A DNA stretch of 64,000 bases. Origin: Planctomycetota bacterium (lineage in GTDB: Bacteria; Planctomycetota; Planctomycetia; Pirellulales; Pirellulaceae). The notes under the pieces were generated by a model. It searched no databases. It was not told the DNA's origin and saw nothing but the letters and a program-made list of their open reading frames with translations. Positions 13,603-39,947 of this stretch are shown here, in pieces; the stretch's first letter is position 1, and each line of letters starts with the position of its first letter. The position numbers and the translations under genes were made by a program. The stretch covers positions 1 to 64,000 of the forward strand of contig JAQBZB010000005.1 of the NCBI GenBank assembly GCA_027622275.1, written 5' to 3'.

Positions 13603-15117
13603 TTGGCTACTAGGTTTAATAGGAGCGAACACGTGCTGCACGTACTTGGAAAACCATCTCGCGTTTGCGAAGGAACGACTCGCCGGCAACTTCTTCAGGC
13701 CGGAGGCGCGGGGCTGCTTGGTCTGTCCGTGCCGAAGTTGCTGCGAGCGGAAGCCCAACGGCTGCAAGCGGGAACCCAGCTGCTGCAAGCGGAAACCCAG
13801 TCGCCGTTTCAGAACGCTCGGGCAAAGTCGGTCATATTCTTGTTTTGCTTCGGCGGGCCTAGTCAGCTCGAAACATTTGATATGAAGCCCGACGCTCCCG
13901 ATACGATTCGCGGTCCCTTCAAGCCGGTTGCGAGTCGCACGCCGGGGCTGCTGATTAGCGAACATCTGTCCCGATGCGCGGCCGTGTCCGACAAGTTTGC
14001 TGTGATCAAGACGATGACGCATGATTTCAACGATCACAGTGGCGGCGGGCATTACGTTCAGACGGGGCATCGCTGGCACCTCCCGATCGGCGGCGGCTTC
14101 AACGTCACACCGAACGATTGGCCCGCGATGGGATCGGTGGTGAAACACTTCTCGCAGCAAGTTCCTGACGATCCAACGCGCGAGATGTCGCCGTACGTTG
14201 TTGTCCCAAATTTCCTGGGTCGCCTGCAAGAATATCGAGTCCAATTGCGGCGCCCCGGCGAGACGGCTGGGTGGCTGGGGCGAGCCTTTGATCCGCTGAA
14301 TACTCGCATCGATAAGAAGGATGCAAAAGACAACCCGTACTGGCGCGATTGCAGCGACGACGAACTGAACTATCAGATCCAGGGGTTGGAAGCTCGTGCT
14401 GATGTGACACTCGACCGGCTCGATCGTCGCAAGTCGTTGCTGCAACAGTTAGACGATCAGCGTCGTTTGGCTGAACAGCATGGTTCGGTCCAGGCATTCG
14501 ACAAGTTCAGGCAGCAGGCCTTGGAACTGGTCACGTCTGAGAAGACCCGCAACGCGTTCGACATCCGCAAGGAGTCCGACAAGCTGCGCGATCAATACGG
14601 CCGCAACCTGTTCGGGCAATCAACGCTGGTCGCGCGGCGATTGGTCGAGGCGGGGGCGCGGTTCGTGACCGTGCATTATGATTGCGTCGATGGTTACAGT
14701 TGGGATTCGCATCAGCATAGCGACGATGTCGCGAAACACTTGCTTCCCGGTTTGGACCAAGCGTTGTCGGCGTTGCTGATCGATTTAGATGACCGTGGCT
14801 TGCTGGACGAGACCCTGGTCGTGGCGATGGGAGAAATGGGACGCACTCCTCAGGCAAACGCGAAGTGGGGGCGAAATCACTGGAGCACGCTGTTCCCTGC
14901 TGTTCTTGCCGGTGCGGGGATTCGCGGCGGCATGATTTATGGCGAGACCGACAAGGATGCGGCTTACGCGGTCAGCAACCCTGTCTCGCCCGAGGATCTT
15001 GCCGCAACGATCTATCACGCTCTCGGTATCGATCCCGAGGCACGCATCTACGACGCGCAACGTCGCCCGGTTCCGATCGTCGATGGCGGGCGACCTGTTC
15101 TCGAACTGTTCGGGTAA
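13603..15117 (+). CDS. DUF1501 (sulfatase-like) exported protein
   Basis: A 504-residue DUF1501 protein, a planctomycete-rich family with an alkaline-phosphatase/sulfatase-like core. The signal is Tat-like (TTRRQLLQAGGAGLLGLSVP). Family landmarks are FCFGGPSQLETFDMKPDAP, THDFNDHSGGGHY, WDSHQHSDDV, VVAMGEMGRTP and HW near the C-terminus. The start is a TTG at 13603. Just after the signal, three imperfect 21-bp repeats (13738-13800) encode LLRAEAQ-RLQAGTQ-LLQAETQ. There is no DUF1549/DUF1553 partner next to it, unlike the other two DUF1501 genes in the window. Confidence 0.85.
   Translation: MATRFNRSEHVLHVLGKPSRVCEGTTRRQLLQAGGAGLLGLSVPKLLRAEAQRLQAGTQLLQAETQSPFQNARAKSVIFLFCFGGPSQLETFDMKPDAPDTIRGPFKPVASRTPGLLISEHLSRCAAVSDKFAVIKTMTHDFNDHSGGGHYVQTGHRWHLPIGGGFNVTPNDWPAMGSVVKHFSQQVPDDPTREMSPYVVVPNFLGRLQEYRVQLRRPGETAGWLGRAFDPLNTRIDKKDAKDNPYWRDCSDDELNYQIQGLEARADVTLDRLDRRKSLLQQLDDQRRLAEQHGSVQAFDKFRQQALELVTSEKTRNAFDIRKESDKLRDQYGRNLFGQSTLVARRLVEAGARFVTVHYDCVDGYSWDSHQHSDDVAKHLLPGLDQALSALLIDLDDRGLLDETLVVAMGEMGRTPQANAKWGRNHWSTLFPAVLAGAGIRGGMIYGETDKDAAYAVSNPVSPEDLAATIYHALGIDPEARIYDAQRRPVPIVDGGRPVLELFG
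13738..13800 (+). repeat. Three 21-bp tandem repeats inside the DUF1501 gene
   Basis: Units at 13738-13758, 13759-13779 and 13780-13800 (core CTGCAAGCGG-AACCCAG) encode three heptads. They lie just after the predicted export signal and keep the reading frame. This looks like a small minisatellite that could vary in copy number between strains. Confidence 0.7.
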
Positions 15118-29062: not shown

Positions 29063-30574
29063 ATGCGTATCGCCATCGGCCAACTCTGGCAGGAAACAAA
29101 CACCCTGAATCCGCTCGCAACCACGCGGGCGGACTTCGAGCAGTTCGGAATCTGCCGCGGCGATGATCTCGTCACGCAAATGGCGGACGTGAATGAACTC
29201 GGCGGATTTATTCAAGCGATGCGCGCCTGGCCCGGGCCGCCCGAGATCGCCGGACTCGTCCGCTTGCCGGCTTGGCCGAGCGGAACGGCAACCGCTGAGT
29301 GTTTCAAATGGCTGCGACGAGAGTTCTTCGGCGCGGTTGAAGCGGCAGGAAACGTCGACGCCTTCCTGCTGGCCCTGCATGGTGCGATGGTCGCGCAAGG
29401 GCAGCCCGATGTCGAGGGCGCGATCTTGCAAGAGTTGCGGGAACGAAGTGGTCCTGATGTGCCGATCGTCGCCACGCTCGATTTGCATACGAACATCACT
29501 CGTGAGATGGTGCGTGCCGCGGATGTTTTAGTGACATATCACTCGATGCCGCACGTTGACATCTTCGAGACCGGCCAGCGTGGGGCCGAAGCCTTGCGAC
29601 GTATGCTCTTCGAAGGCGCCAAGCCGACCACGGCGTTCTGCAAGATCCCCGCCGTTGTCCCGCCGGAGAACTCGAATACGGAAGCCGATGCCGGGATCGC
29701 CGTCGAGCTGAAACGCCGCGTCGTTGAACTTGAAAAGATGTCGAACATTTTGTCGGCCGGCATCGCGCCCGTGCAGCCGTGGATGGATATCCCGCAGTTT
29801 GGCTCCAGCGTCGTCGTCACAACGGACAACGATCCGGCAGCGGCTCGCGCGGCTTGTGTCTCGGTGGCCGAAGAGTTCTGGCGACGCCGACGCGAGTACA
29901 TGCCGACGCTTGTTTCGGTCGAAGACGCAGTTCGGCTGGCCCACGAGGAAAGCGGATTGACTGTCTTGAGCGATGCCGCCGATGCGACGACCTCCGGCGC
30001 GCCAGGCGACAGCGTTTGGATTCTGGCAGAACTATTGAAGTACCGTTGGCCGCGCGAGGCGCTGGTTACAGTTGTCGCGCCCGAGGTCGTCGAGCAATGT
30101 GCGGGCGTCGTTCCAGGTACGCAACTGACCGTAAGTCTAGGCGGCCTGCGGGACAATCGGTTCGGAAAGTCGATCGAGTTGGACGTGACTGTCGAGCGTA
30201 CGTTCGATGCCCGCTTCACGATGACCGGGCATATTGGGAAGAACATGCCGATCGACATGGGACGCTCCGTGGTCCTGCGTCACGCGAGCAACACACTTGT
30301 GATCGTCACGACTCGCACGGGACCGCACTTCGCGCCGGAACTGTTCCGCGCGGCGGGATTCGAACCTTTTGAAGCGTCCGTTGTCATCGCCAAAAGCCCT
30401 TGCGGCTTCCGAGCAGTTTATGCTGGCCACGCCGCGGGGATCTACTCGGTGAAAGCTCCTGGCTGCGCGCCCTCCGACTTCTGGAATCACGACTTCAAGA
30501 ATATCCCGCGCCCACTGTGGCCGTGGGACGACATCGAACAATGGACACCCGCGGAGGGCTTGCTTCAAAAGTGA
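29063..30574 (+). CDS. M81 family metallopeptidase (MlrC-like)
   Basis: 503 residues with the two-domain MlrC arrangement: N-terminal DUF1485 (GQLWQETNTLNP, FLLALHGAMVAQG, ATLDLHTNIT, VTYHSMPHVD) and C-terminal MlrC_C (SVWILAELL, LGGLRDNRFGKSIELDV). Members include microcystinase C, which degrades linearised microcystin peptides; most relatives have unknown substrates. The DxH and YHxxxH motifs are the candidate zinc ligands. The stop overlaps the start of the next gene (GTGA at 30571-30574). Confidence 0.85.
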   Translation: MRIAIGQLWQETNTLNPLATTRADFEQFGICRGDDLVTQMADVNELGGFIQAMRAWPGPPEIAGLVRLPAWPSGTATAECFKWLRREFFGAVEAAGNVDAFLLALHGAMVAQGQPDVEGAILQELRERSGPDVPIVATLDLHTNITREMVRAADVLVTYHSMPHVDIFETGQRGAEALRRMLFEGAKPTTAFCKIPAVVPPENSNTEADAGIAVELKRRVVELEKMSNILSAGIAPVQPWMDIPQFGSSVVVTTDNDPAAARAACVSVAEEFWRRRREYMPTLVSVEDAVRLAHEESGLTVLSDAADATTSGAPGDSVWILAELLKYRWPREALVTVVAPEVVEQCAGVVPGTQLTVSLGGLRDNRFGKSIELDVTVERTFDARFTMTGHIGKNMPIDMGRSVVLRHASNTLVIVTTRTGPHFAPELFRAAGFEPFEASVVIAKSPCGFRAVYAGHAAGIYSVKAPGCAPSDFWNHDFKNIPRPLWPWDDIEQWTPAEGLLQK

Positions 30575-31560
30575 CACTTCCTGTTTCCTACGACGACGTT
30601 CTCGCCGCGCTGCCGCGCGTCCACGCGCTGCTCAAGCCAACGCCGCTGTTCGAATGGCCGGGGCTGACGAAACTGCTGGGCTTTCCGTTTTGGCTGAAGC
30701 ACGAAAACCACCAGCCAGTCGGCGCGTTCAAGGTGCGCGGCGGAATCAATTTTGCAAGTACGCTGAGCGACCACCAGCGGCGGGCCGGCATCATCGGCGT
30801 CTCGACGGGGAACCAAGGCCAATCGCTGGCTTACGCCGGTCGGCATTTTAATGTGCCATGCACGATTGTCGTTCCAGAAAACACGAATCCCAGCAAGTGT
30901 CTGGCAATTCGCAATCTCGGCGCGCAGCTGATCGAACATGGCCGCGACTTCGACGAGGCGAAGGACCATGTCGAAGAGTTGGTGAAGACTCGTGGCGCTC
31001 GTTACGTGCATTCGGCCAACGAGCCGCTGTTGATCGCCGGAGTCGGCACGATGGCGTGGGAGATTTTCGAGCAGCTTCCCGATCCTGACGTGATTCTCGT
31101 GCCGATCGGACTGGGCAGCGGCGTCTGTGGGACTTGCATCGTGGCGAAGCATCGCTATCCGCGAGCTGAGGTCATCGGTGTGCAATCCGAGATCGCGCCG
31201 GCCGTCGCCGAGTCGTGGCGGACGAACACAACCGTCACGACAGATACGGCCAGCACCTGGGCTGAAGGCTTCGCCACGCGGGCACCCGCCGAGATGACGC
31301 TCGAGATCATGCGGGCCTTGATGGACGACGTCATTCTGGTCGGCGAAGACGAATTGCGGCTTGCGGCCTACTGGATCCTCAAGCACACGCACAATCTGGC
31401 GGAAGGCGCCGGAGCCGGTGCGCTCGCGGCAGCGTTCAAATCACGAGGGCGGTTTGCGGGCCAGCGGGTTGTCGGTATCTTTTCGGGCGGCAATCTTGAT
31501 CTAGCGGAGTTGCCACGAATCCTTGAAGCCGGCCAAGTGTACGCGGCGTCGCATCCTTAA
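30571..31560 (+). CDS. Ser/Thr dehydratase-like PLP enzyme
   Basis: 329 residues from the GTG at 30571, which overlaps the M81 stop. Fold-type II PLP motifs are present: HENHQPVGAFKVRGG with the PLP lysine, the STGNQGQSLA phosphate loop, and FSGGNLD near the C-terminus. The glycine-rich VPIGLGSGVCGT replaces the usual GGGGL. This suggests a threonine dehydratase or amino-acid deaminase/racemase relative. Last gene of a four-gene operon; 114 bp separate it from the RAMP cluster. Confidence 0.8.
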   Translation: MTLPVSYDDVLAALPRVHALLKPTPLFEWPGLTKLLGFPFWLKHENHQPVGAFKVRGGINFASTLSDHQRRAGIIGVSTGNQGQSLAYAGRHFNVPCTIVVPENTNPSKCLAIRNLGAQLIEHGRDFDEAKDHVEELVKTRGARYVHSANEPLLIAGVGTMAWEIFEQLPDPDVILVPIGLGSGVCGTCIVAKHRYPRAEVIGVQSEIAPAVAESWRTNTTVTTDTASTWAEGFATRAPAEMTLEIMRALMDDVILVGEDELRLAAYWILKHTHNLAEGAGAGALAAAFKSRGRFAGQRVVGIFSGGNLDLAELPRILEAGQVYAASHP

Positions 31561-31674: not shown

Positions 31675-33306
31675 ATGAACGCTTCAGAAACTGCGTCTCC
31701 CTACTTGCTGCGGATCGAAGGCGTCAACCTATCCTACTTCATCTTCGACACCGATGATCTTAGTACGATTCGGGGCGGCAGCTTGTTGTTGCTATTTGCG
31801 CCAGCGCTCGTACAAGACGATGCGATCTGGAAGCAACTGGCGAATGACGCCCCGGCGGCCGAGATCGTGACATCCGGCGCGTCGCAAACGATCTTGCGTT
31901 TCTCGGCGAAGTCGCAAGCAGCCGCCGATGCCGTTGCGAGGGAAGTTCGAACGTGGCTGCAATGTCACGAGGAACTCGGCGAGGCAACGTTTGTCGTGGA
32001 AGTCCGTCAGGACCATGATGACTTCGCGGTCGACAAAGAGTATCTGTTGGCAGCGAGCCGCTGGCAACAGATGCAACGCCCGCGTCTTGTCGTGCCACCG
32101 TGGAACGAACAGGCAGGTAAGGAGCAGCATCCTTGTGACATCGATTTCGTGCGTCCTGCGACCCACACGATAGACGCCAGAAACCTCAACAAACGCGAGG
32201 TCAGCCGTTCCGTCTCCACGCGCCGGGAATACGGCTTCGTTCACAAACAAGAACTTTATTACAAGCTGACCGGCTGGAAACCTCGTGACCGCGAAGGCAC
32301 GGAGTCGCAGTTGGCATGGGATTTCCACGAGATCGCCGCCCGTGGAGAACATCGGTACGGGCGGGCGGACGACAACGATGGTGATCCGCTTGCACATTTG
32401 CACGACAAGATGGCCGTACTCTACATCGATGGCAACCGATTTGGTGACATCCAACGGAGCAGTTGTCACGACTCAGCACGTCAGCGAGCTTGGGACGAGC
32501 ATGTGCAAGGCCTGCGCAAAAAGGTGCTGAAGAGCTTGCTGGAAAAAACGGACGATGATGACGAATGGATCTGCAAATTGGGGACGCCCAAACAAGGGAA
32601 GCCTCAGCAGATCGCGATTCGTCTCGAAACATTACTGTGGGGCGGCGACGAACTGACCTGGGTTGTGCCCGCCTGGAAGGGCTGGGAAGTCGTGCAAACA
32701 TTCTTCCAAGTTGCCGCCGCTTGGCCCCAATGGCAACAGAATGACAAGGACTCGCTGCAACTGACCCATGCCGCGGGATTGGTCTTCTGTCATGCCAGTT
32801 CTCCGATTCACGGTGTGACGGCGCTGGCCCGCGAACTCGCCGGACAAGTCAAGCAATGGAACAAAGATCAGTCCCAAGGCGAGTTGTCTCGCTATCAAGA
32901 CGGGATTGCTTATCAGGTGCTGGAGTCATTCGATCAACTTGGCGACGAAGTTGCCAAGGCGCGGAAGCGAGACTTGCCAGCCGGTTGCTCGCCCGCTGAT
33001 CTGGTGATTCCAGCAACCGAATTGACCGCACTAACCAGCGACTTGCTCAAGCCAATTCAAACCGGATTTCCACGAGGTGCGGTTTACCGGCTGTTGAAGT
33101 CGTTGCAACGTGGCAAGACCGATGAATATTGGCGATGGTTGGAGCGGGCAATGCGTGATCATCCGGTTCTGCCCGAATCGTTTGGCACCAGCCAAGACAA
33201 CGACGATCTGCCACCTAGTCCTGCGCAACAAATTCGCTGGCTGCACCTCTGTGAGCTATGGGACTACATCGGCCACCTCGACCCTTCGACCTTGGCGGCG
33301 GAGTAG
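31675..33306 (+). CDS. Cas10-like double-palm protein of a type III-like complex
   Basis: 543 residues from ATG 31675, chosen because GGGAG sits 7 nt upstream; the longer open frame has no such signal. Residues 1-130 are compatible with a first palm (NLSYFIFDTDDLSTIRGGS). Residues ~245-400 hold a second palm with LYIDGNRFGDIQ (D252) and LLWGGDELTWVVP (GGDEL 323-327), the position of the Cas10 GGDD cyclase motif. No N-terminal HD nuclease and no zinc-ribbon cysteines are visible. The C-terminal ~120 residues are helical and could correspond to the Cas10 D4 or Cas11-like part. First gene of a four-gene RAMP operon. The GGDE variant leaves cyclic-oligoadenylate synthesis open. Confidence 0.75.
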   Translation: MNASETASPYLLRIEGVNLSYFIFDTDDLSTIRGGSLLLLFAPALVQDDAIWKQLANDAPAAEIVTSGASQTILRFSAKSQAAADAVAREVRTWLQCHEELGEATFVVEVRQDHDDFAVDKEYLLAASRWQQMQRPRLVVPPWNEQAGKEQHPCDIDFVRPATHTIDARNLNKREVSRSVSTRREYGFVHKQELYYKLTGWKPRDREGTESQLAWDFHEIAARGEHRYGRADDNDGDPLAHLHDKMAVLYIDGNRFGDIQRSSCHDSARQRAWDEHVQGLRKKVLKSLLEKTDDDDEWICKLGTPKQGKPQQIAIRLETLLWGGDELTWVVPAWKGWEVVQTFFQVAAAWPQWQQNDKDSLQLTHAAGLVFCHASSPIHGVTALARELAGQVKQWNKDQSQGELSRYQDGIAYQVLESFDQLGDEVAKARKRDLPAGCSPADLVIPATELTALTSDLLKPIQTGFPRGAVYRLLKSLQRGKTDEYWRWLERAMRDHPVLPESFGTSQDNDDLPPSPAQQIRWLHLCELWDYIGHLDPSTLAAE

Positions 33307-33312
33307 CTTTCG

Positions 33313-35307
33313 ATGCTTCAACTAACTTTCACCTTACAGCTCACAATCAAAGGGCCGTTTACGACCAAGTCCTCCGGAGTCGGAGGCTATGGCGTCGACG
33401 CCGTCTTGCTGCGCGACCGCCATGGAAAGCCGTTGCTGCCAGGCACGCAAGTCCGTGGACGCGTGCGCGAGTCCTTGGAGGAACTCGCGTCTGCGATCGG
33501 CGAAAGCGAAGGCGAAACGCTCGCGACATTTGTCCGAAACGCTTTCGGTCCACCGGTCAAACTCGATGCATTCGAACCCGCGCACGGACATCGTGCAGGT
33601 GCGATCCACTTTAGCGACTTTACAGGCAGCGACTCGCCACCGGCTGGCGACGACGCCGAGCAGTTGCTAACTCGTATCCAGGTTGATTCAGCGAAAGGCA
33701 GTGCTCACTCACACGCCTTGCTCGTACTCGAGACGGCAGCCGAACCAGCGCGTCTCATCCGATTCGAAGGCAAAGTGGAGCTATTCGAACGAGACGTTGA
33801 CAGCGCGGTCACGGCGGCGGACTACTTATTCAAAGCCCTCGACTGGGTTCCCTCGCTGGGCTCGTTTCGCACGGTTGGGTTTGGGAGATTCGTCGGCGTG
33901 TGTGTCACTGGCGTGAAGGCGAAGTTGAATGAAGCGGGGGGTGACCAGACCGAGAATCTAGTGCCGGCCCTGGACGATCGGCTCGCGGAGTTATGTGAAG
34001 AAATGCCACCGGCGGACCTCGTCTGTATCGAACCTGCGGCAGCTTGTGCCGAGACAACGTCTTGCTGCCATCTCGAACTGCAACTCCACGAACCGTTCGT
34101 TGTGGGACAGCGACGCACGAACCGTAATATCACGCGGTCGGTCGATTATCTGAGCGGCGCGGTGATCAAGGGTGCGCTCGCCGCTCAACTTCAACGCTGG
34201 TTGTCGGATCGCCGCGAAGTTGGTCCCCGCACGGACGTTGGCACTCTCGGCCCAGGCACGCGCTGGGAGTCGTTGTGTCTTCATTTGTCGCAGATACGTT
34301 TCTGTACGGCGTTCCCGATCCGCAAAGATCAACCCGGTCGGCCCGTCGTCCAACCGTTGTCGCTGGTCAAATTTGACGATCAACTGCGTGATGCGGCACT
34401 CGCGCGCGGGCCTTGTGTGCTGAAAGCCGGCACCGACACGTCAGCGCCGGTCGCACCGGCGTTCTCCGTCGATTGGAAAGACCCGGCAACATCCCCTTGG
34501 GACAGCGGTCTCGCGCGCCCGGTCAAGGAGCTTCGTTTTCATACGGCGATGGATGATCAGACTCGAACGGCGCGACACGAGCATCTCTTTGCACACGAGC
34601 TGGTGCATCCCGTTGATAAAGAGGAACGGCCGCTCGTCTGGCGCGGCACAGTCGACCTGTCTCGCGTGCCAGAGGTCGTCCGCAACGATGTCCGCCGTCA
34701 GCTGGGCGAAGTATTCGGATTCGTCGAGCTTCACTTTGGCAAGACCAAGGCCCGCGCCCAGGCATCGCTCGACACGAGTGCTTCGTTGTCGGCCAGCCAG
34801 GTTTCGTCCACGACTCCGATCGAGGGCAATCAATGGGTGATCGTACTGCAATCGCCGGCATTTCTCGCAGATCCCCGCACCGTTCAACAATCTTGGGACG
34901 CGGGAGAACCGGACGGTTTGAAACGGGAATACGAGCGGGTCTTTGAGGAGTTTTCAGGAGGCTCGTTGCGATTGCTCCGCTACTTCGCCGATCAATCGCT
35001 ACACGGGGGATTCCTGGCACAACGCACGGCCCGTGATTTGAACCAACCCTACAATCCCCTGTTCGTAACCGAACCGGGCAGCGCGTTCGTCCTTGAAGCA
35101 ACCGGCGATCCTTCGTCGGCAGCCGGCCAGATCGAAACTTGGTTCGCAGGCGGCTTGCCGCTCCCCGATTGGGCCAAGACTCTGTATGGCGAGACGTATC
35201 GCACCAACCCGTTCTTGCCGGAGGATGGATTCGGCGAGATCGCCGTCAACCTATCGCTGCATGAATCGCTTCGCATCAACGACGACGAGGCCGAGTATGT
35301 CAACTAA
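33313..35307 (+). CDS. Multi-domain RAMP (Csm3/Cmr-like) protein
   Basis: 664 residues starting 6 bp after the Cas10-like gene. The first RAMP domain (1-200) has a Csm3-like layout: GGYGVDAVLLRDRHGKPLLP, then GTQVRGRVRESL (44-55), IHFSDF and the glycine loop GSFRTVGFGRF (183-193). D29 aligns with the target-RNA-cleaving Asp of Csm3. A second RAMP domain (about 250-470) has FVVGQRRTNRN and LSGAVIKGALAAQLQ but no matching Asp. A third region (about 490-664) is RAMP-like only in outline. This is a fusion of backbone subunits that are separate in ordinary type III complexes. Confidence 0.75.
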   Translation: MLQLTFTLQLTIKGPFTTKSSGVGGYGVDAVLLRDRHGKPLLPGTQVRGRVRESLEELASAIGESEGETLATFVRNAFGPPVKLDAFEPAHGHRAGAIHFSDFTGSDSPPAGDDAEQLLTRIQVDSAKGSAHSHALLVLETAAEPARLIRFEGKVELFERDVDSAVTAADYLFKALDWVPSLGSFRTVGFGRFVGVCVTGVKAKLNEAGGDQTENLVPALDDRLAELCEEMPPADLVCIEPAAACAETTSCCHLELQLHEPFVVGQRRTNRNITRSVDYLSGAVIKGALAAQLQRWLSDRREVGPRTDVGTLGPGTRWESLCLHLSQIRFCTAFPIRKDQPGRPVVQPLSLVKFDDQLRDAALARGPCVLKAGTDTSAPVAPAFSVDWKDPATSPWDSGLARPVKELRFHTAMDDQTRTARHEHLFAHELVHPVDKEERPLVWRGTVDLSRVPEVVRNDVRRQLGEVFGFVELHFGKTKARAQASLDTSASLSASQVSSTTPIEGNQWVIVLQSPAFLADPRTVQQSWDAGEPDGLKREYERVFEEFSGGSLRLLRYFADQSLHGGFLAQRTARDLNQPYNPLFVTEPGSAFVLEATGDPSSAAGQIETWFAGGLPLPDWAKTLYGETYRTNPFLPEDGFGEIAVNLSLHESLRINDDEAEYVN

Positions 35308-36919
35308 ACACTCCAAGTTCGTCAATCGAATCCGTATCGTTGGAAGTCTGACGTTGGACAGCGAATTGCATATCGGTGACGGTGGCGTCACTCCGGACAC
35401 GGCGTTCACGAACAACGAAAACCAAACACGACGCCCGCCCGACATTGCCACGATCGCCCGCGACATGGCAGGCAATCCCGTCGTTCCAGGCGCAGCGATC
35501 AAAGGCGTGCTTCGTTCGTATCTGGAAAAGAGCAAATCGCTCAAGCCGGTGATCGACGCTGTTTTTGGGCGAACGCCGGGAACAAAGTCGTCAGACGTTC
35601 AGGAGCTTCCCGGGGAAGAACGAGGGACTGGCGGCAAAGTCGAGTTTTCGTACGCCCCGTTGCTGCCGCTGGCCAACGACGACGCTGCCGAAACCGTAAG
35701 CGACACAACGAACGAATTGCCCGTTCAATCCTCGGTTGGCATCAATCGTCAGACCGGAGCCGCCCACGATCGGGCGCTCCGCTCGTCCCAGTACGTGCCG
35801 CGTGGCCGCGCGTTCGAAGTCGAGCTAGTGGGATACAACCTTGATGAATCGGAAATCGGGCTATTGCTTCACGGGCTCGATGGATTCGATGATCGCGAGC
35901 GGCTACGGCTGGGCGCGGGCCACGCGAATCAAGCCGGTTTGGCGACGTGGGAATTGGTCGAGTTGCATCACATACAACCGCAGGATGTGAAGCACTGGTT
36001 CGCAACGCCCCACGCCGACCGCCCGGATTGGCGAGACCTTGGCAAGTTGAACTCGAGTGCTCGCAAGAAGCTCGAAGAACGTGCCGCCAAGGCGATCGCG
36101 GGCAAGTTCGCCAAACCGTCACGGCTGACTGGCGAGATCACCTTGCATTTTGATGGGCCGTTCTTGACCAACGACGCGCGCTCGACGGACGACGACGTCG
36201 ATCATCGCCCCAGTTTGACATCCGACGGCAGATTGCTGCTCGCCGCCCGAGGGTTTCGCGGCGCGTTCCGCAGTCACGCAGAGCGGATCGTGCGGACGCT
36301 GAACGGTCAGGCGGCGGGCGACCCATTCGCGAAGCCGCCGGGATCAGCGGCGGCAACGCCGTCGAAGGCGACTCCGAATCTGATCGACGAACTCTTTGGA
36401 AACACGGATCACCGCGCGGTGTTGGAAGTATCCGATTTCGTCGCGGACGCCCCGCTGACTGCGACCGAGGTCCAGGAGTTCGTGGCGATCGACCGCTTCA
36501 CCGGTGGAGCGGCAGACGCGAAGAAGTTCAACGCTCACTTTGTCTACCGACCGACGCTGAAGGGACGATTATCCATTCTGCTGGAGGATCTGCGGCCGTG
36601 GAGCCTGGGGCTGTTGGCGTTGACGGTCCGCGATTTGATCGAAGGCGATATCACGTTCGGCTGGGGCGCTTCCAAAGGTTATGGAGCCTGTCGTGCGGAG
36701 ATCAGCAAAATCTCCTGCCCGATAGCGTTCGATGTGACCCAAGCCTTTGGCGAAGAGTTCTCGATCGATGCGAAGAGCTGGAAGTCGTCTCATAAATTGC
36801 TACACCAAGCCGCACCGCTGGACCCGAACTTGCTTGAACCAACGAAGTCCATCTTTCCCACATTGCTCGCCAGTGCTGTACAACAACTTCACGCCAAGCT
36901 TGGCATCACCGCCAAATGA
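35297..36919 (+). CDS. Double Csm3-like RAMP protein
   Basis: 540 residues from ATG 35297, overlapping the previous stop by 11 bp. Two Csm3-type domains are fused. Domain one: ELHIGDGG, D49 in PPDIATIARDMAGNPVVPG, then AAIKGVLRSYLE and the loop LRLGAGHANQAG. Domain two (from ~275): D302 before SDGRLLLAARGFRGAFRSH, ELFGNTDHRAVLEVSDF, EFVAIDRFTGGA and the loop FGWGASKGYGAC. D49 and D302 fall where Csm3 has its RNA-cleaving Asp. The linker between domains is rich in charge. Predicted to form backbone segments that bind guide RNA and cut target RNA. Confidence 0.78.
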   Translation: MSTKHSKFVNRIRIVGSLTLDSELHIGDGGVTPDTAFTNNENQTRRPPDIATIARDMAGNPVVPGAAIKGVLRSYLEKSKSLKPVIDAVFGRTPGTKSSDVQELPGEERGTGGKVEFSYAPLLPLANDDAAETVSDTTNELPVQSSVGINRQTGAAHDRALRSSQYVPRGRAFEVELVGYNLDESEIGLLLHGLDGFDDRERLRLGAGHANQAGLATWELVELHHIQPQDVKHWFATPHADRPDWRDLGKLNSSARKKLEERAAKAIAGKFAKPSRLTGEITLHFDGPFLTNDARSTDDDVDHRPSLTSDGRLLLAARGFRGAFRSHAERIVRTLNGQAAGDPFAKPPGSAAATPSKATPNLIDELFGNTDHRAVLEVSDFVADAPLTATEVQEFVAIDRFTGGAADAKKFNAHFVYRPTLKGRLSILLEDLRPWSLGLLALTVRDLIEGDITFGWGASKGYGACRAEISKISCPIAFDVTQAFGEEFSIDAKSWKSSHKLLHQAAPLDPNLLEPTKSIFPTLLASAVQQLHAKLGITAK

Positions 36920-36947
36920 CCGCGGACGAATCACAAAGGATCAAGTC

Positions 36948-39374
36948 ATGCCGAAATTTCATAACCCCTACCATTTCGTACCGATGCCCGCGGGACAGGG
37001 CGACCAGCCGCCAGCGGTTGCGAGACGAGAGTTCGAAGGTCAAACGGCAGCCCACTTGACGCACGATCGTTACGTCTCGCAATTGTTCAGCGGGCGTCTG
37101 GTGTGCCAGTTGCAGACTAAAGATCCTGTGATCATCGGTGCGGCGCAAGAGGCTGGCGACAAGTCGAGCAACACGAGCCGACAAGTCACGCCCTTTCAAC
37201 TGCCGAATCGCTCGGCCACGGACGCTGGTGAGGCAGAGAAGCTGCCGGCAATCCCCGCTTCGACGCTGCGCGGATTGATCTCGTCTGTCACCGAAGCAGC
37301 CACCTGCTCGGCGATGCGAGTGCTGGCCGATACGCGGCTGTCGCGGCGGATGGCGATGGGAAAAGGAACGCGAAGGGAGTCGCTCTCCGCCATCGGAATG
37401 ATTGTGATCGAGAAAGACGAAAATGGTACGGAGACGCGCCGCTTGCGTCCGTTGGCCTTGCCATCGCTGCAATATGATGTGGCGCAAGGTCGCTCGATAC
37501 TGAAAGACGAGCAAGCGGCCGTGTGGAAGATGTTCTCAGATTGCCGAACTGCACTGCGAGTTTACGTAGATGTGGAACCCGATTCCTACGGTGCCGACAA
37601 CCGCAACGAATTTTGGTATTTGAAGCTTCCCCCGCAGGACGCGATTCGAGTCACCGCAGACAAATCGGGGATCGAAGTTCAGGACGTGGGCGGGGCGGGA
37701 GACCGTGGCCGAGAGCTCTCCTGTCCCTTTGCCAAGATCAAAGTAACTGGCCCGACCCATCAGTTATTGGCACAACAACCTGTCGGCAACAGGAATCCGC
37801 TATCTCGAGACAAACTCGAATTGCCATCCCCGGAAGCCAACCCGGCCGATCACGGCTACACGCGCGGAATTCTGCGTGTCTTGGGGATCTTCGACGGACG
37901 CGCTAGCGAGATGCCGACCAAGAAGCACGAGATCTTCTTGCCCTACACCGAGCGCGACGAACAGCGGCCTACTTTCGCAATCACCGACGGTGCCTGGGAC
38001 ACCTTCCGCGCCCTGGCGGACCAGCAAGCGTCGTTGAACAAGGAAAATACGAAACCGGGTGATCAGTTGCCCTTCCATACCAAAGGCTCGCAACGCGCTG
38101 AGAAGACCAAGATCAAACGCATCGAACATCCGTTACGGTTACGCGACGGCGATCTGGTCTTCTTTCAAGCGGGTGACGGGGACGATGGGGAGCCGGTCGT
38201 CGATGAATTGGCCGTCTCGTCGATTTGGCGGAAGGACTCGGGGCCGGTGCATGCTTACTTCGAAGGCCTTTCTCCCGAGCTGCTCCCCTTCAACACGCAG
38301 CGCAAGACGATCACGGTGGCGGAGCAGATGTTCGGCTTCGTGGAAGAAGTGAAGAAGGAACTCACGGCGAAGTCGGCCGCCGGTTCCGCCAAGAAGCCGC
38401 CCCCGCTGGCGTTCAAAAGCCGGTTGCGATTCTCGTTCGGGCACGCGGCACCAAGCCAGAGCGACCTGTTGCTGCCCGAGGTGCCGCTGCGTCCGCTGCT
38501 GTCCCCCAAGCCACCCTGCCCGGCGATGTACTTCACGCGACGCTCCGGTTCACAAAAACTCATCACCAAACAGGAATTGAAACCGCCACACAACAAGACC
38601 CAAGGCAAACAAGACGACCAGGACTACATTCCGCAAGGCCGTAAGTTCTACTTGCATCGCCATGACGCTGGTCAGCCCCTTCCGCCAAACGCCGAACCCT
38701 GGCGGGCCGACGATCAAGCCCGACCCGATCTGTCCGCGATCGCAACTCCGATCGCCGCCAACAAGACCTTCTGGTTCCACGTCGACTTCCACAATCTAAC
38801 ACGGCACGAGCTGTCCGCGCTTTGCTATGCGCTATCGCCCGCCGACCAGTGGCTCGAAGCCGGTGACTATCCCCCCCAGCTCTTGGCAGACGGCGCGCGG
38901 CCCAAGTTCTGGCACAAGCTAGGCATGGGGAAACCGCTGGGTTTGGGAGCGGTCGAGATCAAGCCCTTGGGATTGTTTTATGTTGATCGAGAGCAGCGGT
39001 ATCGGGAATTGACTTGGGACAAAAGCGCGCCGCGTTATCGTTGCGTCCGCTTCCATGCCGGTGGCGATGCAGGGTTGTTGCCCGCTTGGTACGAGCAAGA
39101 GCGGGCGACCCAAGAAAGCGGTGCGGACGGACACTACGCATCGTTCGGCGAATTGCGTGCCGAGTTCCGTGGTTCGATGAACCGAACCGTTCGCCGAGCG
39201 TTGGAGTTGATCGGAAATCCCGCGTCAATTACGGCCCTCGTTCAGCCACCGCGCGACGAACAGGCCGAGCCGGCCAAGGCCCAGTACGAATGGTTCGTGC
39301 GGAATAAAAAGCAGTGCCTGCCGCCGGTCACCGCCGAGTCGGAACAACTGCCCAAACTCGACACTCGTCATTAG
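36948..39374 (+). CDS. TIGR03986-type CRISPR-associated RAMP protein
   Basis: 808 residues from ATG 36948 with AAAGGA upstream. It begins MPKFHNPYHFVPMP, the signature opening of TIGR03986 RAMP proteins. Next come HDRYVSQLFSGRLVCQLQTK and IPASTLRGLISSVTEAAT, the usual RAMP helix after strand one. A second RAMP half covers roughly 470-790 (DYIPQGRKFYLHRHD, KLGMGKPLGLGAVEIKPLG as glycine loop). In other genomes this family occurs beside Cas10 and Csm3-like genes in type III loci. It is the last gene of the operon, followed by a repeat-rich non-coding stretch and no CRISPR array. Confidence 0.82.
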   Translation: MPKFHNPYHFVPMPAGQGDQPPAVARREFEGQTAAHLTHDRYVSQLFSGRLVCQLQTKDPVIIGAAQEAGDKSSNTSRQVTPFQLPNRSATDAGEAEKLPAIPASTLRGLISSVTEAATCSAMRVLADTRLSRRMAMGKGTRRESLSAIGMIVIEKDENGTETRRLRPLALPSLQYDVAQGRSILKDEQAAVWKMFSDCRTALRVYVDVEPDSYGADNRNEFWYLKLPPQDAIRVTADKSGIEVQDVGGAGDRGRELSCPFAKIKVTGPTHQLLAQQPVGNRNPLSRDKLELPSPEANPADHGYTRGILRVLGIFDGRASEMPTKKHEIFLPYTERDEQRPTFAITDGAWDTFRALADQQASLNKENTKPGDQLPFHTKGSQRAEKTKIKRIEHPLRLRDGDLVFFQAGDGDDGEPVVDELAVSSIWRKDSGPVHAYFEGLSPELLPFNTQRKTITVAEQMFGFVEEVKKELTAKSAAGSAKKPPPLAFKSRLRFSFGHAAPSQSDLLLPEVPLRPLLSPKPPCPAMYFTRRSGSQKLITKQELKPPHNKTQGKQDDQDYIPQGRKFYLHRHDAGQPLPPNAEPWRADDQARPDLSAIATPIAANKTFWFHVDFHNLTRHELSALCYALSPADQWLEAGDYPPQLLADGARPKFWHKLGMGKPLGLGAVEIKPLGLFYVDREQRYRELTWDKSAPRYRCVRFHAGGDAGLLPAWYEQERATQESGADGHYASFGELRAEFRGSMNRTVRRALELIGNPASITALVQPPRDEQAEPAKAQYEWFVRNKKQCLPPVTAESEQLPKLDTRH

Positions 39375-39523: not shown

Positions 39524-39706
39524 GAGGTCGTGCAGCTTTTAAGTCGAACTGAGTTAGATGTTTAGAGTAACGCTGAACCAGTTCACGGAGAACCACGGAG
39601 TTGGCGTCGCATGGCTAGCGTCGCATCCAATCTGTTGTTTCCCAACTCCGCACGCCTACAACTCAAAACTCCCGAATAACAAACAACTTAAAAGCTGCAC
39701 GACCTC
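39524..39706. mobile_element. 183-bp element with perfect 21-bp terminal inverted repeats
   Basis: The arms at 39524-39544 and 39686-39706 are exact reverse complements (start GAGGTCGTGCAGCTTTTAAG). The 141 bp between them have no credible gene. The form is that of a MITE or a non-autonomous element. It lies 150 bp after the RAMP operon. Confidence 0.6.
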
Positions 39707-39831
39707 CTTTGGGAAGGGCCGCTTCAATCGAGCCAGAAAGCGACGCACGTGAGACTCCGGCAACGCCGGAGAGTCGAGCAGATGGACGGCGTCCGGCATG
39801 TATACGTAGCGCGGTCCGCAACCGCAAAATT

Positions 39832-39883
39832 GTAGACGGCACACTCCGTGTGCCGAATTCCGCACACGGAGTGTGCCGTCTAC
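39832..39883. terminator. Perfect 22-bp hairpin between convergent genes
   Basis: The arms at 39832-39853 and 39862-39883 (core GACGGCACACTCCGTG) pair exactly around an 8-nt loop. It lies between the RAMP operon and the convergent dehydratase gene (stop at 39948), so it could stop transcription from both sides. The sequence also looks like a planctomycete REP element. The rest of 39375-39947 shows only a short GGCAACGCC hairpin. Confidence 0.55.
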
Positions 39884-39947
39884 ATTATGCACAAAATAAC
39901 TTCAAATTCGCGGATTACTGATGCAAGCGACCAGATCACACGAGACT

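What the first reader, a model, noticed from the sequence alone, without database searches (positions are those of the whole stretch)
31675..39374. Type III-like RAMP operon with no CRISPR array, adaptation genes or processing enzyme
Seen: four genes, with gaps of +6, -11 and +28 bp, encode a Cas10-like double-palm protein, two fused multi-RAMP proteins and a TIGR03986-type RAMP. No repeat array, Cas1, Cas2, Cas6, HD domain, CARF or HEPN protein is in the window. Known: type III complexes normally keep Cas7-like subunits separate (type III-E and some III-D fuse them). Inferred: a minimal fused type III effector that either borrows guide RNAs from elsewhere in the genome or has been turned to another RNA- or nucleotide-signalling role.
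Basis: partly seen in the sequence, partly recalled or inferred. Interest (0 to 1): 0.88.

Follow-up and report, generated by a model that had tools for sequence, protein, structure and literature searches.

The report
Type III-D CRISPR effector, array elsewhere
This is a type III-D CRISPR effector operon, a known kind of RNA-guided RNA-cutting machine, whose guide-RNA array and helper genes are missing locally but most likely sit on another contig of the same genome, so the 'array-less' look is a split locus and not a new system.

Summary
The four genes are real: Cas10 (HD-less, palm motif GGDE), Cas7-Cas5, a double Cas7 (Cas7-2x) and a TIGR03986-type Cas7-insertion. The rest of the 94.4-kb contig holds no array or other cas gene. 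The architecture is known. It lies between type III-Dv (Synechocystis, but without Csx19 and the fused Cas11) and III-D2 (but with Cas7x3 still two genes). The closest solved complex is PDB 9wxh. All three Cas7 cleavage aspartates are kept.

This is the only Cas10/RAMP locus found in the 9.8-Mb draft genome. Contig C445 carries the complementary set with no effector: CorA (frameshifted), NrN (DHH phosphodiesterase), Cas6-RT-Cas1, a 12-repeat array and Cas2. In five of six relatives those parts are joined, in varying sets, to the same effector; the sixth contig is too short to tell. So the effector most likely takes its guides from C445 in trans. A misassembly at a shared 75-bp repeat is a minor alternative.

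Unexpectedly, three of these loci pair a III-D effector with CorA plus NrN, which a 2025 survey says III-D loci lack. That suggests, but does not show, SAM-AMP signalling. I rate it a new variant of a known kind.

The parts
31675..33306 (+). cas10: large subunit, no HD domain, palm 2 with metal-binding LYIDGN and GGDE (LETLLWGGDEL)
   Evidence: PF22335 4.3e-6, PADLOC Cas10 1.9e-32; PDB 9wxh_B 5e-53; GGDE in all seven clade members, GGDD in Synechocystis
33313..35307 (+). cas7-cas5 fusion (N-terminal Cas7 with D29; C-terminal Csx10-like Cas5). The Cas11 tail present in the Synechocystis III-Dv protein is absent.
   Evidence: RAMPs 4.2e-12, Csx10 TIGR02674 6.7e-6, PDLC01408 5e-52, 9wxh_C 5.9e-57, alignment to Synechocystis
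35297..36919 (+). cas7-2x: two fused Cas7 domains, predicted catalytic D49 and D302
   Evidence: two RAMPs stretches 9.1e-32; 9wxh_D residues 15-463 at 8.4e-55; D33/D246 equivalents
36948..39374 (+). cas7-insertion (TIGR03986 family), the last Cas7 with a large insertion
   Evidence: TIGR03986 1.6e-69 over cut-off; 9wxh_D C-terminal part 1.7e-61
39525..39705 (.). 181-bp element with perfect 20-bp terminal inverted repeats just downstream of the operon; 75 bp of its right part (39633-39707) are identical to the right end of contig C445
   Evidence: sequence; genome search, five near-full copies; blastn
30400..31560 (+). PALP-family (threonine-dehydratase-like) gene: last gene of a syntenic block (ADH-M81-PALP) shared with same-genus genomes; synteny ends at its 3' end, where the effector operon begins. 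Boundary marker, not part of the system.

Best explanation
The operon encodes a crRNA-guided type III effector of a III-D2/III-Dv-like clade: Cas10, Cas7-Cas5, Cas7-2x and Cas7-insertion. It has lost, or was inserted away from, its local array and accessory genes. The likely mechanism is as follows. Cas6-RT-Cas1 on contig C445 cuts the C445 array transcript into crRNAs (inferred). The four proteins assemble once each around a crRNA (inferred from III-Dv). They cut complementary RNA at three positions through D29, D49 and D302 (residues shown, activity inferred). Binding of foreign RNA switches on the Cas10 palm domain (GGDE), which makes a nucleotide messenger; the CorA-family membrane protein on C445 senses it, and the DHH phosphodiesterase NrN removes it (inferred, with SAM-AMP the most likely messenger). 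New spacers are taken up by Cas6-RT-Cas1 and Cas2 (inferred). Shown here: gene identity, intact residues, uniqueness of this effector in the draft genome, content of C445, and physical linkage of the same parts in relatives. The functional coupling in trans is inferred.
For: Profile and PDB matches of all four proteins. All three catalytic aspartates conserved. Genome searches: the only RAMP genes are these; the only Cas10 is this one, the second Cas10-palm hit being a GGDEF diguanylate cyclase by inspection; the only PF10040 Cas6 match is the Cas6-RT-Cas1 on C445. C445 carries CorA, NrN, Cas6-RT-Cas1, a 12-repeat array, Cas2 and no effector subunit. Relatives hold these parts in cis: Escarpia endosymbiont L033 (Cas6-CorA-Cas10-Cas7-5-Cas7-2x-Cas7ins-NrN-RT-Cas1-Cas2-array); L034 (Cas6-CorA-effector-NrN to contig end); Tistrella L024 (effector-Cas6-array-CorA-array-RT-Cas1-Cas2); class relatives L085 (array-effector-NrN/CorA fusion, NrN 50% identical to C445 NrN) and L086 (RT-Cas1, 38% identical to C445's, then Cas2, array, effector). 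C445 has the same GC and tetranucleotide profile as the window and 20 sampled contigs.
Against: Coupling in trans is not demonstrated. The genome is a 555-contig draft (96.2% complete, 4.05% contamination), so another type III effector could be missing. CorA on C445 is interrupted by one frameshift, so the signalling arm may be dead, unless this is a sequencing error. CorA+NrN also occurs in a same-family genome (G274) that has a different Cas10 and no hit to this effector clade, so the pair is not specific to this clade. RT-Cas1 modules combine promiscuously with type III effectors (PMC5513706). Repeat similarity between the C445 and L033 arrays was not specific. No spacer match in the phage collection.
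Confidence: 0.72

Rival explanations
1. Orphan effector: the operon was acquired horizontally without partners and is not coupled to C445. The C445 module belongs to a type III effector that was lost or lies in the unassembled 4% of the genome. The operon is idle, decaying, or uses another Cas6.
For: The operon starts exactly where synteny with three close relatives ends, so it is lineage-specific. CorA on C445 is frameshifted. RT-Cas1 modules often lack effectors (PMC5513706). CorA-NrN occurs with other type III systems.
Against: All four reading frames and every checked catalytic residue are intact, so there is no sign of decay. C445 holds most of the accessory set found next to this effector in relatives, and its NrN and RT-Cas1 best matches among the compared loci are in III-D2-like loci of the same class. 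No other Cas10 or RAMP gene is in the assembly.
Confidence: 0.16
2. Assembly artefact: effector and C445 module are neighbours in the real chromosome. C445 ends in 75 bp identical to window 39633-39707, so the contigs may have been joined wrongly at this repeat; the true locus would be effector (+) followed by Cas2, array, Cas6-RT-Cas1, NrN and CorA on the other strand.
For: Exact 75-bp identity between the C445 end and the region 260-335 bp downstream of the operon, in the orientation needed. The convergent layout resembles relative L085.
Against: The repeat has five near-full copies, so the match is not unique to this pair. In C380 the 75 bp sit inside a short 181-bp element with both terminal repeats, different from whatever lies beyond the C445 end, so reads longer than 75 bp would resolve it.
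Confidence: 0.08
3. A repurposed, non-CRISPR RNA-binding or nucleotide-signalling complex that works without crRNA.
For: No array, Cas6 or Cas1 within the 94.4-kb contig; HD domain absent.
Against: The three target-RNA cleavage aspartates and the palm motif are kept. The same effector in relatives sits next to arrays and adaptation genes. A complete crRNA-supply module is in the genome.
Confidence: 0.04

Closest known systems
Type III-Dv effector of Synechocystis PCC 6803 (PDB 8s9t; PMC11026444)
   Same: Same gene order cas10, Cas7-Cas5 fusion, Cas7-2x, Cas7-insertion; no working HD domain; three catalytic Cas7 aspartates in matching places.
   Different: No Csx19 gene, which is required for assembly or stability in Synechocystis; no Cas11 domain on the Cas7-Cas5 protein; GGDE instead of GGDD; separate well-supported Cas10 clade (100/99). 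CorA/NrN instead of Csm6/Csx1.
Type III-D2 (Cas10 and Cas6 kept, three fused Cas7 domains = Cas7x3; PMC8730458) and the complex in PDB 9wxh/9wxi/9wxj
   Same: Best PDB match of all four proteins; the 1,235-residue 9wxh_D equals window genes 3+4. Three class relatives have the fused Cas7x3 with the same Cas10 and Cas7-Cas5.
   Different: In the window Cas7x3 is two genes (Cas7-2x and Cas7-insertion); no Cas6, array or adaptation genes in cis. I could not find a paper for 9wxh, so its subtype label is my inference.
Tistrella mobilis pTM1 type III locus (NC_017957)
   Same: Same four unfused genes; Cas10 36% identical, same GGDE.
   Different: Complete in cis: Cas6, two arrays, CorA, RT-Cas1, Cas2; gene 2 lacks the D29 equivalent (His); no NrN found.
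CorA/NrN SAM-AMP type III-B system of Bacteroides fragilis (PMC10600005)
   Same: CorA-family membrane protein plus DHH phosphodiesterase NrN, HD-less Cas10.
   Different: The effector is III-D-like, not Cmr. The D70 position (N300 in P. furiosus) appears to be glycine here, as in the cOA-making Synechocystis enzyme (manual alignment).
Subtype III-G (effector without array or adaptation genes, crRNA presumably in trans; PMC12669027)
   Same: No local array or adaptation module.
   Different: III-G has an inactive palm and an active HD; here the palm looks active and HD is absent.

Membership tests
Type III CRISPR effector | Cas10 with palm domains plus Cas7 and Cas5 RAMP subunits | tested here: met
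Type III-D | Csx10-type Cas5 | tested here: met
   Csx10 TIGR02674 6.7e-6 but below its equivalog cut-off; Cas5_IIId 1.7e-7 and III-D fusion model 5e-52
Type III-Dv | Cas7-Cas5-Cas11 fusion | tested here: not met
   Cas7-Cas5 present; no counterpart of the Synechocystis Cas11 tail in the window protein or three relatives
Type III-Dv | Csx19 subunit | tested here: not met
   no gene between cas7-2x and cas7-insertion; no tblastn hit of Synechocystis Csx19 on the 94-kb contig
Type III-Dv | Cas7-2x and Cas7-insertion as separate proteins | tested here: met
Type III-D2 | single Cas7x3 protein | tested here: not met
   two genes in the window; fused in L084, L085, L086 and 9wxh_D
Type III-D2 | Cas10 and Cas6 retained | tested here: inconclusive
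   Cas10 yes; Cas6 only in trans, as Cas6-RT-Cas1 on C445
Type III-E (Cas7-11) | single-protein effector without Cas10 | tested here: not met
   Cas10 present and four proteins; gRAMP model matches only partial and far below cut-off
Complete CRISPR-Cas locus | array and crRNA processing in cis | tested here: not met
   none on the contig; both on C445
RNA-cleaving type III | catalytic Asp in each Cas7 | tested here: met
   D29, D49, D302 align with D26, D33, D246 of Synechocystis
Signalling Cas10 | GGDD-type palm 2 motif | tested here: met
   GGDE, listed as a variant seen in loci with known effectors (PMC11229360); activity not tested
SAM-AMP signalling (CorA type) | CorA and a SAM-AMP-degrading enzyme encoded with the effector | tested here: inconclusive
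   in cis in L033, L034 and L085; for the window only on C445, with a frameshifted CorA
SAM-AMP signalling (CorA type) | acidic residue at the D70 (N300 Pfu) position of Cas10 | tested here: inconclusive
   manual alignment through the LPNKALAIV strand puts Gly68 there, as in Synechocystis; remote alignment
SAM-AMP signalling (CorA type) | SAM-AMP is made on activation | not testable with these tools
   needs biochemistry

The most novel reading that the evidence does not exclude
A III-D2-like clade whose Cas10 carries GGDE signals by SAM-AMP (or a related conjugate) to CorA with NrN as off-switch, extending this pathway from III-B to III-D. In this genome the pathway, guide array and RT-based spacer uptake are physically split from the effector and work in trans.
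Probability: 0.4. Interest if true: 0.62.

Novelty: new variant of a known kind. Interest (0 to 1): 0.42.

Why it matters
It turns an apparent array-less oddity into a concrete case of a split type III locus, with the effector on one contig and adaptation, guide supply and signalling on another. Such trans co-operation is often presumed for type III but rarely has both halves named in one genome. It also gives direct counter-examples to the statement that III-D loci with CorA lack known SAM-AMP-degrading enzymes (PMC12669027): L033, L034 and L085 encode NrN next to a III-D-like effector. That makes the open question of which messenger III-D CorA senses directly testable. The three fusion states of Cas7-2x and Cas7-insertion in one Cas10 clade add intermediates to the III-D to III-E fusion series.

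Tried and rejected
AlphaFold2 of gene 2 with a four-row alignment gave pLDDT 41; it was not used and no fold search was made. Repeat similarity between C445 and relatives' arrays: p = 0.005 with L033, but the unrelated C75 array gave 0.009, so it was rejected as evidence. Spacer targets: no match of the C445 array in the phage collection; no significant match in the sampled own contigs. Viral contigs: no relative of the Cas10 clade; phage records: no Cas7-Cas5 relative. Phylum search with PDLC01408 gave only the window and two weak hits. The second palm hit C391 is a GGDEF protein, not Cas10. The NrN tree could not place C445 with support, so it is not used. Promoter and terminator counts near the operon do not exceed shuffles.
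Full report
OBSERVATION. Gene 1 is a Cas10 (PF22335 4.3e-6; PADLOC Cas10 1.9e-32). Gene 2 matches RAMPs 4.2e-12 at its N-terminus and Csx10-type Cas5 after it. Gene 3 has two RAMP stretches (9.1e-32). Gene 4 is TIGR03986 family (1.6e-69, above cut-off). The whole contig C380 is 94,421 bp. No array is found in it with settings that do find the C445 array, and no Cas6, Cas1, Cas2, CorA or NrN homologue.

WHAT THE PROTEINS ARE. All four best match the chains of one solved complex, 9wxh: gene 1 to chain B (5e-53), gene 2 to chain C (5.9e-57), gene 3 to residues 15-463 of chain D (8.4e-55), and gene 4 mainly to residues 723-1195 of the same chain D (1.7e-61). Genes 3+4 are therefore the unfused version of a protein with three Cas7 domains. 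A protein with three fused Cas7 domains is the mark of variant III-D2 (PMC8730458). The gene order also matches the III-Dv operon of Synechocystis: cas10, cas7-cas5-cas11, cas7-2x, csx19, cas7-insertion (PMC11026444). Two III-Dv features are missing. There is no csx19, and gene 2 ends where the Synechocystis Cas5 part ends, so there is no Cas11 tail in it or in three relatives. Cas10 lacks an HD domain, as is usual for III-D (PMC11229360). Its palm 2 motif is GGDE, conserved in all seven members of the clade, against GGDD in Synechocystis and Anabaena. GGDE is listed among variants seen in loci with known effectors. The aspartates shown to cut target RNA in III-Dv (D26, D33, D246) align with D29 of gene 2 and D49 and D302 of gene 3. 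Nothing in the operon looks decayed.

THE REST OF THE GENOME. The genome is a draft of 9.78 Mb in 555 contigs, 96.2% complete. Searches of it find no RAMP genes outside this operon and no other Cas10; the second palm hit is a GGDEF protein by inspection. Five cas1 loci exist. One of them, contig C445, carries CorA, NrN (PDLC01071 1e-66, DHH_CorA 1e-33) and a Cas6-RT-Cas1 fusion, then a 12-repeat array and Cas2. It has no effector subunit. Its Cas6 is the only PF10040 match in the genome. C445 has GC 0.595 and tetranucleotide correlation 0.757 with the genome background, within the range of other contigs. CorA on C445 is split by one frameshift near position 14,855.

RELATIVES. A genome scan and class-wide search gave six relatives of this Cas10 clade. 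Gene content was read from local BLAST and PADLOC models. Tistrella pTM1: Cas10, Cas7-Cas5, Cas7-2x, Cas7-insertion, Cas6, array, CorA, array, RT-Cas1, Cas2. Escarpia endosymbiont (L033): Cas6, CorA, the four effector genes, NrN, RT-Cas1, Cas2, array. Methylothermaceae MAG (L034): Cas6, CorA, the four genes, NrN, contig end. Class relative G528 (L085): array, Cas10, Cas7-Cas5, Cas7x3, and an NrN-CorA fusion whose NrN part is 50% identical to the C445 NrN and whose CorA part aligns along both frames of the C445 CorA. Class relative G638 (L086): RT-Cas1 (38% identical to the C445 one), Cas2, array, Cas10, Cas7-Cas5, Cas7x3. Class relative G627 (L084): three effector genes on an 8-kb contig. In the Cas10 tree these seven form a fully supported clade apart from Synechocystis, Anabaena and G269 (100/99). 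Five of six relatives thus carry in cis parts that in the window genome sit on C445; the sixth contig is too short to tell. In L033 the four effector genes lie between CorA and NrN. In C445, CorA and NrN are adjacent and the effector genes are absent, as if they had been moved out.

WHERE THE OPERON SITS. In two same-genus genomes and one other family member the block ADH-M81-PALP (in one of them only M81-PALP was matched) is conserved up to the PALP end (window about 31,517). After that nothing matches, and neither the operon nor the enolase genes are there. The operon therefore lies at a lineage-specific breakpoint. Just downstream is a 181-bp element with 20-bp inverted ends. Its right 75 bp are identical to the right end of C445 and occur in five near-full copies in the genome. 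A shared mobile element beside both halves could have mediated the split; this is speculation. It also leaves a small chance that the contigs were joined wrongly there.

MECHANISM. Best reading: a crRNA-guided RNA-cleaving complex with an active Cas10 palm domain, fed with crRNAs from the C445 array by Cas6-RT-Cas1, and signalling to the membrane protein CorA with NrN as off-switch. Residues, gene content and linkage in relatives are shown; assembly, crRNA loading, messenger identity and trans coupling are inferred. The case for SAM-AMP rests on CorA plus NrN only. The acidic Cas10 residue that marks the III-B SAM-AMP makers (D70, equivalent to Pfu N300) seems to be glycine here, as in the cOA-making Synechocystis enzyme (manual alignment), so this test is inconclusive.

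KNOWN OR NEW. Type III loci without arrays or Cas6 are common, and Cas6 is usually thought to come in trans (PMC12669027). About half of RT-cas1 loci lack effector genes and are thought to work in trans (PMC5513706). So the split is an example of a suspected pattern, not a new kind. New in detail: a clade with GGDE Cas10, without Csx19 and the fused Cas11, with Cas7-2x and Cas7-insertion either split or fused, and with CorA plus NrN in III-D loci. The 2025 classification says known SAM-AMP-cleaving enzymes are not encoded in III-D loci (PMC12669027); L033, L034 and L085 are counter-examples if these loci are counted as III-D.

Noticed in passing
window 39525-39705; C445:21530-21604; C192:1-69; C32:2-68; C252:16530-16596: 181-bp element with perfect 20-bp terminal inverted repeats (AGGTCGTGCAGCTTTTAAGT) downstream of the operon; its right end recurs at 100% identity in five places, three of them at contig ends, suggesting a mobile element that breaks the assembly.
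   Followed up: partly
window 39831-39884: Almost perfectly self-complementary intergenic stretch that recurs in other contigs of the genome (L053, L039): a dispersed palindromic repeat.
   Followed up: no
L085:9500-12034 (minus): NrN-CorA fusion protein next to a III-D2-like effector and an array in a genome of the window's own class.
   Followed up: yes
L007:13592-15717 (contig C445): CorA-like membrane protein interrupted by one frameshift near 14,855; sequence continues in another frame, so a recent mutation, an assembly error or recoding are all possible.
   Followed up: partly
G000 contigs C550, C294, C75, C322: Four further cas1 loci in the genome, among them type I-C (Cas8c on C550) and a Cas9 locus (C322), with arrays of different repeats on C294, C75 and C322.
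   Followed up: partly
L007:2820-5072 (minus, contig C445): SEFIR plus NACHT/NB-ARC-like STAND protein near the CRISPR adaptation module, probably part of a defence island.
   Followed up: no
L059:13021-16712 (G274:C173): CorA and NrN pair on a contig with HEC-01- and Hma-like defence genes and no effector on the contig, in a same-family genome whose best Cas10 hit lies on a different contig.
   Followed up: partly
L060 (G358:C85): Cmr-type III-B genes with both a CARF-TM protein and an NrN-like DHH protein; its Cas10 palm is split over two frames with a stop inside.
   Followed up: no
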